NCBI RefSeq assembly: GCF_001647675.1
Contig: NZ_CP015594.1
Location: 930,001 to 994,000, forward strand
Reading direction: 5' to 3'
From: Acinetobacter sp. NCu2D-2
Lineage (GTDB): Bacteria; Pseudomonadota; Gammaproteobacteria; Pseudomonadales; Moraxellaceae
Length of the DNA stretch: 64,000 nucleotides
A model generated the notes under the pieces. That model worked only from the letters and a program-made list of their open reading frames with translations, had not been told where the DNA came from and ran no database searches. Within the stretch, counting starts at the first letter, position 1. The number at the start of each line of letters is the position of its first letter. Below, piece by piece: positions 5,031-9,960 of the stretch. Position numbers and translations under genes: made by a program.

Positions 5031-5993
5031 ATGTTATTTCATACTTCAAAATTGCCTGCTGAAATTCGTATTGCGCATCTCAATGCCCGCATCAACGAAC
5101 AACGTAAAAAAATCGCGCAAACGACGGCATCAAAATTAGAGTTATTACAGTTAACTCAACAACTTTCTAAAGAAGCACGTGCACGTAAAAAGAATAATCA
5201 AAAAATTTATGTCCTCGATTTTAAAGGTGATACAGCAGCATCTGCTGTTGAACAACTGCGTGAAGAAACTACCCTCATTTTAGCCACTGCAAAATCAGGT
5301 CGTGACCGTGTAGTGGTTCGTCTTGAAAGCCCCGGCGGCATGGTGCATGGCTATGGCTTGGCTGCTGCACAACTGGTTCGTTTACGTGATGCAGGGTTTC
5401 ATTTGACCATTTGTGTCGATAAAGTTGCTGCAAGTGGTGGATACATGATGGCATGTATTGCTAATGAAATCGTATCTGCGCCGTTTGCAGTGGTCGGTTC
5501 TATTGGTGTGGTTGCACAAGTACCTAACTTTAATCGTCTACTCAAAGAAAAGAATATCGACTTTGAGCTGTATACCGCAGGTCAGTACAAACGTACCGTG
5601 ACGATGTTTGGTGAAAACACCGAAGAAGGTAAGGCTAAGTTTGAAGAAGAACTGCAACAAACCCATGCACTGTTTAAGCACTTTGTTGAAAAATATCGTC
5701 CACAGCTTAATGTTGAAAAAGTGGCAACTGGTGAGCATTGGTATGGTCAAGATGCCCTTGATTTAAACTTGGTCGACAGCTTAAAAACTTCAGATGAATA
5801 TTTATTATCACTGCTTCCACAGCATGATGTGTATGTGATTGAAACTCGTAAAAAACCGACACTTGGTGAGAAACTTGGTTTACAAGCGGCTCAAATGGCG
5901 GATTCAATTGTCCCAGCAGTCATGAATAAAGTCATGGAAACGTTGAGTAAAGCTAACTCAAGTTTAGTGCAAATGCGTGATCCTAAACTTTAA
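5031..5993 (+). CDS. sohB: SohB-like S49 family serine peptidase
   Basis: This 320-residue S49 (signal peptide peptidase/SohB) protein uses a Ser-Lys dyad. The nucleophile is Ser135 in AASGGYMMA, and the general base is Lys187 in GQYKRT. Their spacing of 52 equals that of E. coli SohB (Ser178/Lys230). The oxyanion region LESPGG lies upstream. Family members usually carry an N-terminal membrane anchor. Here residues 1-60 are charged and polar with no hydrophobic segment, so the enzyme may be cytoplasmic or anchored by a partner. It is followed by a strong terminator. It probably degrades membrane-released or misfolded peptides, as inferred from the family. Confidence 0.88.
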   Translation: MLFHTSKLPAEIRIAHLNARINEQRKKIAQTTASKLELLQLTQQLSKEARARKKNNQKIYVLDFKGDTAASAVEQLREETTLILATAKSGRDRVVVRLESPGGMVHGYGLAAAQLVRLRDAGFHLTICVDKVAASGGYMMACIANEIVSAPFAVVGSIGVVAQVPNFNRLLKEKNIDFELYTAGQYKRTVTMFGENTEEGKAKFEEELQQTHALFKHFVEKYRPQLNVEKVATGEHWYGQDALDLNLVDSLKTSDEYLLSLLPQHDVYVIETRKKPTLGEKLGLQAAQMADSIVPAVMNKVMETLSKANSSLVQMRDPKL

Positions 5994-6036: not shown

Positions 6037-8018
6037 ACGTATAAATAACGGAGTTTAATTTGTTCTACTGAGCCAGATTTGTTAATTTGAACGCATTCAG
6101 GATTTATAAATTTTAATATTGGGGACATCATGACGAAGATCGTCGTTTATAGTAAAGATCATCTTATACCATTACAAAATACACAAAATAATCAAATCGT
6201 TTTAAATAAAAATTCATTGGTTTTGATTCATCATCCTAAAGAAAGTATTGCGTCAATTGAACGTTCAGGCACTTCAGCCATTATTCATCTTAAAAACGGT
6301 GAAACCATCGTTTTGGAGAATTTCTTTAATTTAGAGGGAACACCTGAAAACCAAATTGTGCTCAGTAATCCACAAGGATATTACGATGTAATGTTGTTGG
6401 ACGAGCAAGGTCAGCTGATTCAGTACAACCCTGTAAACAATATTAATGTCTTAGCCAATAGTCCGAATTGGATCAGTTCTACACAAGTCAATGCAATTCA
6501 GGCAGCAGCTGATGAATCTACGCCTTGGTATAGTTCAAATATTATTAAAGGCGGCTTGGCACTAGTTGCAGCCGAAGCGCTTTATCTGACCGCATTTAAA
6601 AAAGATGATGATAAAGACAATACACCTAAAGATACCATTGCACCTGCTACACCCAAAGGTACTTTAGATGAAGCAGGAAAAGTCATCACAGGTCAAACTG
6701 AGGCGAATGCAAAGATTTATGTGATTGATGCTAATTATAATGTACTGGCTGAAGTCCAAGCAGATGCATCGGGAAACTACAAACTGAGTTTAAGCCGCGA
6801 CATTGTGAATAATGAAAAGGTTTATGTTTATGCTAAAGATGCAGCAGGGAATTCTTCTTCATTATTGGCTTTAACAGGCACTAAAGATACTTTGGCCCCG
6901 GAGGTTGAATCAGCACAGTTTTCAGAAGATGGAGCATTCGTCACCGGTAAAACTGAAGCAAAGGCAAAGGTTTATGTTTATGCAGAAGATGGTGTGACAG
7001 TATTAGCTGGCCCAATTACCGCTGCAGCGGATGGCACATTTACGCTGAATTTAAATCCACCTTTGTCATCAAATGATAAAGCTAAAGTCATTGCAGTCGA
7101 TGAAGCTGGGAACAAGTCAACTGCTTATGAAGTGATTGTTGGGCAAGATACCATTTCACCGGCACAACCTCTTATCGAAGTAAGCACCGATGGAACTTTG
7201 ATTAAAGGCAAAGGTGAAGTTGGAACAACGGTTCAGATTTTAGATGCCAATCAAAATGTGATTGCAGAGCAAGTGATTGGTAGTGATGGCACTTTTAATA
7301 TCACTTTAAATCCCGCGATGACAGACACATCGAAATACAGTCTGATGCTGAAGGACAGTGCGGGCAATCAATCTAAAGCCGTTGAGTTAAAACTCGGCTT
7401 AGACACTTTAGCACCTGAAGAAGTTCAAGCAACATTGAGTGATGATGGTAAGAAACTCACAGGTACAGCAGAAGCAAATAGCACGATTGAAGTTAAGAGT
7501 GGAACGACTGTAATGGGTACGGGTCAAGCGGATGCTTCTGGGAAATTTGAAATCACACTCACAACTGCATTATTAAACAATAACAAAGCGACAGTGATTG
7601 CTTATGATGCGGCAAAGAATGCATCGCCGTCTTTGGAGATTACAGGGACTAAAGACACAGTAGCACCGAACAAAGTTGTACTTCGTACTGTGACTGATGA
7701 TATTGGGGACAGTAAAGGCTCAATTACGTCTGATAGCACGACTGATGACAGTCAACCTAAGTTTGAAGGCACAGGTGAGGCTGGAGCAACCATAACCATT
7801 TATAACCATGGTATTCCCATTGGAACGACGGTGGTCACTTCAAATTCAACGTGGTCATTTACCCCAATTAAGCCTCTGGAGTTGGGCGAACAGAGTATTA
7901 GTTTTACACAAATGGATGCTGCAAAGAATACCAGTGATATGAGTGATGCATTTAAATTTACTGTTGTTGCTCAGGTAAGTGTATCTGAGAGCGAAGAGAA
8001 TATAGATGTAGAAAGTCT

Positions 8019-8047
8019 ATTATCTGAAGATAACGGGGCGAATTCAA
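8019..8047 (-). promoter_or_regulatory. hybrid outward promoter formed by IS end and adhesin gene
   Basis: Reading outward on the minus strand, TTGAAT (complement of 8042-8047, inside the IS end) is followed after exactly 17 nt by GATAAT (complement of 8019-8024, in the adhesin gene). Both boxes match sigma-70 consensus well and transcription would run antisense to the adhesin gene. From memory, ISAba125 supplies the same TTGAAT -35 box with the same spacing upstream of blaNDM. Confidence 0.6.
8034..8036. repeat. 3-bp target-site duplication, left copy (CGG)
   Basis: CGG directly abuts the left IS end and is repeated at 9124-9126 after the right end. Removing one copy plus the 1087-bp element restores the adhesin reading frame, which supports this boundary over alternatives. 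Confidence 0.8.
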
Positions 8048-9123
8048 ACATGAGGTGCGACAGTTTCAAAAGCCTTATGATAATCAACAAGCTGAGCAAA
8101 TTTCTCTAATGGTGTAAGCCAATCTAACGCTTTTCTAGGGCGAGTATTCAGAGACATGGCAACTTGATTTAAATAATGCTGATCTGCCTGGTTTAAATTA
8201 ATCCCTTTAGGTAAATATTGCCTAATTAAACCATTCATATTTTCGCATGTGCCTTTCTGCCATGGCGAATGTGGGTCACAGAAATATACATCTATGCCTA
8301 AATCTTCTTCGAGGATTTTATGTTCTGACATCTCACGTCCACGGTCATAGGTCAATGTTTTACGCAGTTCTGCGGGTAAATATTTCAGAGCTTCAGTTAA
8401 AGCCTTGCGCACTGATTCTGCCTTTGCATCAGGTAATGTTGCCAAGATACAGAGCCGTGTATTTCGTTCAATAAGTGTTGCTATCGAACTTTTATTGTCT
8501 TTACCTTTAATTAAATCGGCTTCCCAATGACCCGGTATTTTTCTTTCTTGAACTTCGGTTGGGCGCTCATGAATAGTTTTAATATCCTGTAATATAGAAT
8601 CTTTTTTAGGTTCACCGTTAGCTTTTCGCTTTTTATTTTCATGACGCAGACAGGATAGTAAGTCTTTTTTCAGCTCACCCTTTGGTAATGCTCGTATCGT
8701 TGAATAAATCGTTGTATGGCTTACATTCATTGTTTGATCCAAATCAGGAAATCTCTTTAAACGCTTTGCTATTTGCTGAGGAGACCATAAACAACGGATC
8801 GCTTCAACAATAAATTTCCAGAGGATTGAATCGATTTTGAGTTTTCTGTGACCACGTCTACGTCTAGCGAAGGTGTTATCAGAAGCATATTGAGCTTGAT
8901 AAACGTCATTGATGCTATTTCTTTTAAGCTCACGATAGATCGTACTAGGATGTCTTTTAATGAGTTCAGCAAATTTTCTGGGTGAAAAGCCTTCTTTTCT
9001 TGACTCAAGCATTAATGCAGTACGATCTTCAAAGTTAAGATGATGGTATGACAATTTTATATACTCCATAAACCCTTTAAATTAATTAGGTGGTTTATGT
9101 CGCACTTCAAGTTTTACTCTGCC
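8037..9123 (-). mobile_element. ISAba125-like insertion sequence (IS30 family), 1087 bp
   Basis: A complete IS with imperfect terminal inverted repeats of about 27 bp (8037-8063 and 9097-9123). They share the core GTGCGACA and an AAAC block further out. Its length of 1087 bp, the 3-bp target duplication, the outward TTGAAT -35 box and the single IS30-type transposase all agree with what I remember of ISAba125, an Acinetobacter element known for mobilising and activating resistance genes. The name rests on memory of length and end sequence, not on a database comparison. Boundaries could shift by one base because G/C residues repeat at the junction. Confidence 0.85.
8044..9069 (-). CDS. IS30 family transposase
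   Basis: This 341-residue DDE transposase fills the element. An N-terminal helix-turn-helix (about 20-60, with FSPRKFAELIKRHPSTIYRE) should bind the terminal repeats. The catalytic core shows the IS30 motifs GHWEADLI (first acidic residue), LTYDRGREM (second) and DPHSPWQKGTCENMNGL (final Glu). The frame is intact from ATG 9069, and its TGA stop (8044-8046) lies inside the left terminal repeat, as is common in compact IS30 elements. The transposase therefore looks functional and the insertion may be recent. Confidence 0.93.
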   Translation of the reverse strand: MEYIKLSYHHLNFEDRTALMLESRKEGFSPRKFAELIKRHPSTIYRELKRNSINDVYQAQYASDNTFARRRRGHRKLKIDSILWKFIVEAIRCLWSPQQIAKRLKRFPDLDQTMNVSHTTIYSTIRALPKGELKKDLLSCLRHENKKRKANGEPKKDSILQDIKTIHERPTEVQERKIPGHWEADLIKGKDNKSSIATLIERNTRLCILATLPDAKAESVRKALTEALKYLPAELRKTLTYDRGREMSEHKILEEDLGIDVYFCDPHSPWQKGTCENMNGLIRQYLPKGINLNQADQHYLNQVAMSLNTRPRKALDWLTPLEKFAQLVDYHKAFETVAPHV

Positions 9124-9126
9124 CGG
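9124..9126. repeat. 3-bp target-site duplication, right copy (CGG)
   Basis: Direct repeat of 8034-8036 flanking the right IS end. Confidence 0.8.
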
Positions 9127-9343
9127 TAATGGTGAAATTGATAACTTACTAAGTCAATTTGATACAGATACAGCAAATACAAATTTAAATAGTGCTGCAC
9201 CATCTATATTGGCTACAAACATTGCTTCTACCAATCCGCAAGTGGAAGATTACGTGCATAATGATGTTTGGATCATAGGTTAAATATTTAGCTGTGTGCA
9301 TAGATTGAATTTTTTATATTGACTGTTTTATTAGGTTGGAATA

Positions 9344-9420: not shown

Positions 9421-9504
9421 TGAATTATGTGTATTTTAGTCAAGTAGTCACGGGTATAGAATTCTAATAATGATAAAATTATAAAAACGCGATTGAATTT
9501 TATA

Positions 9505-9960
9505 ATGTTATTTATATGTTTAGTTGTAATAGGCTTTGTTTTTTTAGTTCTCGGTCCAATTCTTATACCAAGAATGATGAGTTTGAACGGACGTGACATT
9601 CAACATGAGGGATTTATTTGGTACAGTTTTGGGCCTGGGCTATTCATAATGATTATTGCTTTTTATATACACTCACAACAACCGGTTAAAGTTTCATATG
9701 GCTGTGGTGTTGTTCAGTCCTATAAGTTAAATATAAATTCTAAAAACAAATTTGAAAGAGTTGTTATTCAATTTGAAGATTCTGCTTATTATCGACATTT
9801 AAGATTTAAAGATCATCTGTTACGTAAGGAATCGGGTGATTATGTTTGTTTCGAATTTAACGATAAGTTTAAAAATTCCTCTTTGAAAGAATCCGTCGTT
9901 TTAAAATGGATTGAGCCTACTGAAATGCAAAATATTAAGCGTATTAATCAGATAAAATAA
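9505..9960 (+). CDS. small membrane protein of unknown function
   Basis: This frame encodes 151 residues from ATG 9505. A TTG at 9493 is in frame, but neither start has a convincing ribosome-binding site. Two hydrophobic helices (about 1-20 and 40-58) are separated by a short polar loop. A soluble, charged C-terminal domain of about 90 residues rich in Lys, Phe and Asp follows. I do not recognise the family. The region is AT-rich, with weak translation signals. It sits between the decayed gene copy at 9344 and the intact gene at 9988, so it belongs to a variable patch of small genes downstream of the adhesin gene. Confidence 0.55.
   Translation: MLFICLVVIGFVFLVLGPILIPRMMSLNGRDIQHEGFIWYSFGPGLFIMIIAFYIHSQQPVKVSYGCGVVQSYKLNINSKNKFERVVIQFEDSAYYRHLRFKDHLLRKESGDYVCFEFNDKFKNSSLKESVVLKWIEPTEMQNIKRINQIK

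What the first reader, a model, noticed from the sequence alone, without database searches (positions are those of the whole stretch)
6130..9283. BLP2-type adhesin gene knocked out by an ISAba125-like element with exact reconstruction
The IS occupies 8037-9123 (1087 bp) with CGG repeated on both sides. Deleting IS plus one CGG rejoins the frame and yields a 687-residue protein with an intact C-terminus, so the gene was recently functional. The missing C-terminal part of such proteins normally holds the secretion region. The strain has probably lost this biofilm-associated protein.
Basis: partly seen in the sequence, partly recalled or inferred. Interest (0 to 1): 0.7.

Follow-up and report, generated by a model that had tools for sequence, protein, structure and literature searches.

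The report
Adhesin gene split by jumping element
In this Acinetobacter genome a copy of a well-known jumping DNA element sits inside a gene for a small biofilm-type surface protein and cuts off its last 51 amino acids, an ordinary kind of gene damage that an uninterrupted relative confirms.

Summary
A 1087-bp IS30-family element (8037-9123) interrupts a Blp2-like adhesin gene, with identical 3-bp repeats on both sides. It is ISAba125: 98.2-98.3% identical to the best listed public copies, with both published inverted repeats. The closest relative found (G012, unnamed) has the gene uninterrupted, 687 aa, beside the same protease gene. Both window pieces, compared separately, align to it without gaps. 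No call rejoined the gene.

The element swaps the last 51 residues for a 23-residue tail but leaves every recognised domain. 'Knock-out' therefore depends on the lost tail carrying a type I secretion signal. Blp2 tails share a terminal pattern in 21 of 25 non-redundant sequences against 2 of 169 controls; the window's 3' piece has it and the new tail does not. The pattern was chosen post hoc: suggestive, not proof. A transporter and three other BapA_N proteins remain.

One addition: the element's outward -35 box meets a -10-like box in the gene, a candidate antisense promoter.

The case is ordinary. Whether other strains of the species share it is unknown.

The parts
6130..8036 (+). 5' piece of a Blp2-like adhesin gene: BapA_N domain, five Big_6 stretches and one Big_13 Ig-like match
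   Evidence: (scanned as 6130-8031): PF22783 72.6 bits, PF17936 260.3 bits (5 stretches), PF19077 78.2 bits; NF040520 Ig_like_BLP2 674.2 bits (cut-off 750)
6130..8109 (+). open reading frame as it stands, 659 aa: 636 residues as in the gene, then a 23-residue tail read from the element
   Evidence: residue count from the coordinates
8034..8036 (.). left copy of the 3-bp repeat (target duplication)
8037..9123 (-). ISAba125 (IS30 family), 1087 bp, inserted against the gene's orientation; IR-R at the left end, IR-L at the right end
8044..9069 (-). IS30-family transposase, 341 aa, intact frame
   Evidence: NF033563 334.2 bits, cut-off 80
9124..9126 (.). right copy of the 3-bp repeat (target duplication)
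9128..9283 (+). 3' piece of the Blp2-like gene: 51 full codons and the stop, now in another frame and separated from the start
   Evidence: 72.5% aa to L017:3409-3561, 51 codons, no gaps
8019..8047 (-). candidate fusion promoter reading out of the element, antisense to the adhesin gene: -35 TTGAAT (element), 17-nt spacer, -10-like GATAAT (gene)
   Evidence: same -35 as in published ISAba125 fusion promoters; a -10 match this good at this spacing occurs at 2.3% of sites in the window
5031..5993 (+). S49-family peptidase gene, left neighbour of blp2 loci
9493..9960 (+). 155-aa ORF without Pfam or NCBIfam match, right neighbour

Best explanation
A copy of ISAba125 transposed recently, by ordinary IS30-type transposition with a 3-bp target duplication, into the 3' end of an otherwise intact Blp2-like adhesin gene in an unnamed Acinetobacter. 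The nearest known source is the almost identical copy on the genome's 310-kb second contig (probably a plasmid, not typed). The insertion replaces the last 51 residues by 23 element-derived ones. Shown: the insertion, the repeats, the uninterrupted relative and the changed C-terminus. Inferred: that the lost C-terminus carries a type I secretion signal, so that the truncated protein is made but not exported and the adhesin is lost at the surface. Also inferred: that the element's outward -35 box with the gene's GATAAT may drive antisense RNA over what remains.
For: Element identity, ends and repeats. Recent movement: the copy on the second contig differs by 2 of 1087 bases and a second chromosomal copy by 11; all three have exact 3-bp repeats and transposase frames without internal stops. 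Gene intact before insertion: both pieces align without gaps to the uninterrupted 687-aa ortholog L017, with dN below dS (0.139 against 1.59 for the 5' piece, 0.137 against 0.33 for the 51-codon 3' piece). A second 687-aa protein, P0002, represents a 90%-identity cluster of 20 member sequences (78% to the 5' piece). Synteny: in 19 of the 80 named Acinetobacter loci kept (of 211 relatives found) a Blp2-like gene follows the same S49 peptidase, with a frame of 704-742 aa to the stop in all 19. Secretion inference: 21 of 25 tails against 2 of 169 controls; one LssB-type type I secretion ATPase is over its cut-off (860 bits, cut-off 693).
Against: No expression or secretion data exist. The truncated protein keeps every recognised domain and could still work or be secreted. 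The four C-terminal features were chosen after looking at the sequences; a stricter motif modelled on the window and Bap-like tails fits only 4 of 38 Blp2 tails (and 0 of 423 controls), and the two large adhesins of this genome that I tested fail the four-feature test. The sequence of the 3' piece is recognised in only 1 of the 112 other loci searched. Only one genome of this species was found, so the insertion could be peculiar to one isolate.
Confidence: 0.8

Rival explanations
1. The truncated protein is still functional: the last 51 residues are dispensable, and the 659-aa product with its BapA_N and Ig-like domains is exported and works, so the insertion is nearly neutral.
For: All recognised domains lie in the retained piece. 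The 3' piece has no Pfam or NCBIfam match and no sequence match at E <= 1e-3 in the other loci searched except L017 (1 of 112, some of which end before this region), so its sequence as such is poorly conserved.
Against: A terminal pattern is kept in 21 of 25 non-redundant Blp2 tails against 2 of 169 controls and is absent from the new tail (features chosen post hoc). Adhesins that use type I secretion usually carry the signal at the C-terminus (recalled knowledge, not tested here).
Confidence: 0.2
2. The insertion is a strain-private or laboratory event (arisen during culture of this one isolate), without ecological meaning.
For: The only exact match in the protein search was the window itself (P0001, 1 member, 1 contig); the other listed relatives (119 of 826 hits) are at most 78% identical. 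The element looks active and has three full-length copies.
Against: Nothing specific. Blp2-like genes are also broken or missing elsewhere: a two-frame split in G028, 5 of 6 A. junii genomes in PMC4647330 (passages), and no Blp2-like gene at this locus in 61 of 80 kept loci, of which 57 have at least 4 kb held downstream.
Confidence: 0.3
3. The insertion is a switch: the element excises precisely now and then and turns the adhesin back on.
For: Both gene pieces are free of decay and the repeats are exact.
Against: Those traits equally follow from recency. No variant site was seen, and precise excision of IS30-type elements is rare (recalled, not tested).
Confidence: 0.03

Closest known systems
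ISAba125 (IS30 family)
   Same: 1087 bp; published IR-L and IR-R present exactly; 98.2-98.3% nucleotide identity to the best listed plasmid and E. coli records, 9 of the 10 listed E. coli ones labelled ISAba125; -35 TTGAAT at IR-R overlapping the transposase stop codon
   Different: 18 of 1087 bases and 5 transposase residues differ from the copy beside blaNDM in an A. lwoffii plasmid; here it lies inside an adhesin gene
Blp2 (BAP-like protein 2) of the A. calcoaceticus-baumannii complex, PMC4647330
   Same: BapA_N start, Ig-like repeats, about 700 aa, and the same S49 neighbour in the fetched loci
   Different: 41-48% aa identity to the nine proteins over the NCBI cut-off, a shorter and different C-terminal region, and a score below the Blp2 cut-off even for the intact ortholog
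IS-broken surface genes of A. baumannii NCIMB8209 (PMC7392541, abstract and passages seen)
   Same: IS copies at or in adhesin genes (bap locus with ISAba13, ata with ISAba26), linked there with low biofilm
   Different: other elements, other genes and another species

Membership tests
ISAba125 / IS30 family | IS30-type transposase | tested here: met
   NF033563 334.2 bits, cut-off 80
ISAba125 / IS30 family | published ISAba125 inverted repeats at both ends | tested here: met
   IR sequences of PMC3356367 (passages) found near both ends
ISAba125 / IS30 family | high nucleotide identity to labelled copies over full length | tested here: met
   98.2% over 1087 bases; 9 of the 10 E. coli records listed (of 617 with a match) carry the label ISAba125; plasmid records 98.3%
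ISAba125 / IS30 family | short target duplication | tested here: met
   3-bp repeat at 3 of 3 full-length copies in the genome
ISAba125 / IS30 family | ISfinder name comparison | not testable with these tools
   no ISfinder copy on hand
Blp2 (NF040520 equivalog) | score at or above the curated cut-off of 750 bits | tested here: not met
   broken piece 674 bits; the intact ortholog in G012 also below, 650 bits. Called Blp2-like here
Blp2 (NF040520 equivalog) | BapA_N start followed by Ig-like repeats | tested here: met
   PF22783, PF17936 (5 stretches), PF19077
Blp2 (NF040520 equivalog) | same locus (after the S49 peptidase gene) | tested here: met
   S49 gene beside the Blp2 gene in 9 of 9 loci over the cut-off (L005-L013; cut-off); some of these are the same genomes as named loci
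type I secreted adhesins | C-terminal secretion signal | tested here: inconclusive
   terminal features in 21 of 25 Blp2 tails against 2 of 169 controls, chosen post hoc; two large adhesins of this genome fail them
type I secreted adhesins | export shown by experiment | not testable with these tools
   needs fractionation or mass spectrometry

The most novel reading that the evidence does not exclude
The insertion does more than truncate. By landing so that its outward -35 box stands 17 bases from a GATAAT box, facing the gene's start, ISAba125 has built an antisense promoter that silences what remains of the adhesin gene, so one insertion gives both truncation and shut-down.
Probability: 0.2. 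Interest if true: 0.35.

Novelty: new member of a known kind. Interest (0 to 1): 0.17.

Why it matters
It is a clean example of an active insertion sequence removing the end of a biofilm-type adhesin in an unnamed Acinetobacter. It points to two cheap tests: whether Blp2 proteins use a C-terminal type I secretion signal, which the 2015 description gives for BAP and BLP1 in the passages seen, and whether ISAba125, known for switching on resistance genes, can also silence a gene by antisense transcription. For the strain itself it is at most one adhesin fewer, with three related ones left.

Tried and rejected
A scan of genome contigs with the 5' piece found no relatives (64 pattern matches, none confirmed), because patterns from one protein reach close relatives only. 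The scan with the S49 neighbour gave 211 relatives, of which the best 80 were kept. No uninterrupted allele of the same species was found: the protein search scored 8000 candidates and listed 120 of 826 hits, and its best match other than the window itself is at 78%. Of 58 genomes searched with the Blp2 model, 27 match and 9 pass the cut-off; 2 of 14 control genomes match, none over the cut-off.

A strict C-terminal motif modelled on the window and Bap-like tails was rejected as a family mark: 4 of 38 Blp2 tails, 0 of 423 controls. It was replaced by four looser features chosen after seeing the tails: 21 of 25 at under 50% identity, 30 of 34 at under 70%, 2 of 169 controls. Proteins outside 650-760 aa or without a stop were dropped, as were P0001 and L015 (the window's own product). 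The controls are mechanical ORFs of at least 150 aa from the same loci and the window, not checked as genes.

The promoter scan as a whole is no better than chance (8 sites against 6.1 +/- 2.8 in shuffles). Only the published role of the -35 box singles out the site at 8047-8019. The other two copies of the element lack such a -10 box, and with three copies to look at one hit at 2.3% each is only mildly surprising. A first comparison of the other two transposases was made on the wrong strand and repeated correctly. The lower dS of the 3' piece was not taken as a sign of anything at the insertion, since identity to G012 is also high just left of it (89%). No structure prediction was run.

Print searches: 15 papers; 23, of which 15 listed; 9; 3; 5; 3; 1. 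Only PMC8987773 holds both 'blp2' and 'ISAba125' (listing and start of abstract seen, text not opened). Passages were seen of PMC4647330, PMC7392541, PMC9330008, PMC3356367, PMC10051319 and PMC12075148; the last two report blp2 presence (75.6% of 78 equine isolates; all isolates) and in the passages seen no IS in it. I saw no report of this insertion; subscription papers are not in the library.

Full report
What was checked. The IS occupies 8037-9123, 1087 bp, with CGG on both sides. Its minus-strand ORF (341 aa) is an IS30-family transposase. It carries, near its two ends, the IR-L and IR-R sequences printed for ISAba125 in PMC3356367 (passages seen; match). Over the full length it is 98.2-98.3% identical to the best listed public records, and 9 of the 10 E. 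coli records listed (of 617 with a match) carry the label ISAba125. Among plasmids 2207 records hold a match, 1034 of them over at least 80% of its length, so it is very common; 64 have a best place at 99% identity or more, which were not among the 20 rows listed and were not examined.

The genome. The window lies in a 2.74-Mb contig of a two-contig genome. Three full-length copies of the element exist: this one, one on the 310-kb second contig that differs by 2 bases, and a second chromosomal copy that differs by 11. All three have exact 3-bp repeats and transposase frames without internal stops. The organism is an Acinetobacter without a close named relative among those fetched: over the 5.5 kb upstream the best-scoring named match, A. 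pseudolwoffii, is 74.6% identical (loci). The record itself, or one very near it, may be left out of the named collections.

The gene. The 5' piece has a BapA_N start, five Big_6 stretches and one Big_13 match, and matches the NCBI Blp2 model over positions 1-621 of 730 with 674 bits, below the cut-off of 750. The intact ortholog in G012 also falls short, at 650 bits, so these two genomes have a divergent, slightly shorter Blp2-like protein. I therefore do not file it as Blp2 in the strict sense. Its place beside the S49 peptidase gene is the same as in 9 of 9 loci that pass the cut-off.

The test by orthologs. G012 has the gene uninterrupted: 687 residues, with matches to the window's 5' piece (634 codons, 78.4% aa, no gaps) and 3' piece (51 codons, 72.5% aa, no gaps) in one continuous frame. 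P0002, representing a cluster of 20 member sequences, is also 687 aa and agrees with L017 at 662 of 687 positions. Among the 80 named loci kept by the S49 search (of 211 relatives), 19 have a Blp2-like gene there, all with 704-742 aa to the stop. In 61 it was not found at this locus; 57 of these have at least 4 kb held downstream. By sequence the 51-residue 3' piece is recognised at E <= 1e-3 in only 1 (L017) of the 112 loci other than the window's own two, some of which end before that region.

Is it a knock-out? The frame as it stands makes 659 residues: 636 as in the gene, then 23 read from the element. No recognised domain is lost. The case for loss rests on the C-terminus. PMC4647330 (passages seen) states that BAP and BLP1 end in sequences like those of RTX toxins secreted by type I systems, and does not say so for BLP2 in those passages. 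I compared tails: of 25 Blp2 tails less than 50% alike, 21 have all four of two terminal hydrophobic residues (a final G allowed), no charge in the last five, an acidic residue at -6 to -14, and no K or R in the last twelve. Of 169 control tails, 2 do. The window's 3' piece has all four; the new tail lacks three. The features were chosen post hoc, the two large adhesins of this genome that I tested do not meet all four, and a stricter motif failed as a family mark. I read this as a probable, unproven, type I secretion signal. The genome has one LssB-type transporter over its cut-off and three other BapA_N proteins with stop-to-stop frames of 2644, 1960 and 2627 aa. The phenotype is therefore uncertain, although knocking out BLP2 in A. 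baumannii AYE made the biofilm about half as thick and lowered adherence 1.7-fold (PMC4647330).

A side effect. The element lies with IR-R towards the gene's start. Published work describes the -35 box TTGAAT at this end forming fusion promoters with a -10 box outside, for blaNDM-1 and aphA6 (PMC3356367 and PMC9330008, passages seen). Here a GATAAT follows at 17 bases on the minus strand, antisense to the adhesin gene. A -10 match as good as this at 16-18 bases occurs at 2.3% of sites in the window (3.0% in the gene's own antisense strand), and neither of the other two copies has one. This is a modest coincidence worth a test.

Verdict. The insertion is real and recent-looking, and its identification is right. 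It is an ordinary member of a known kind: IS-broken adhesin genes are described in A. baumannii NCIMB8209 (PMC7392541, passages), and frameshifted blp2 genes in A. junii (PMC4647330, passages). The functional claim is plausible but not shown.

Noticed in passing
6250-7929 against L118: The middle of the gene is 64-78% identical to G012 in 120-base steps, while its first and last steps before the insertion (88-89%), the S49 gene upstream (86%) and the DNA downstream (85-86%) are closer, as if the Ig-like centre had been exchanged or had diversified separately.
   Followed up: partly
L032 1486-3683 in its reverse complement (G028): In another Acinetobacter genome the Blp2-like gene is split into two overlapping frames, apparently an independent break by frameshift.
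   Followed up: partly
9493-9960; loci such as L036, L037, L057, L087: The 155-aa neighbour without family match gives three tblastn matches in some other loci, possibly tandem copies of a small gene at this spot.
   Followed up: no
L116 1887-9791 (minus); L117 3-4271; G000:C1:812545-812865: The genome holds three further BapA_N proteins: a 2634-aa chromosomal one and a 2627-aa open frame on the 310-kb contig, both with visible long repeats (no family scan of the whole proteins run), and a 1960-aa open frame.
   Followed up: partly
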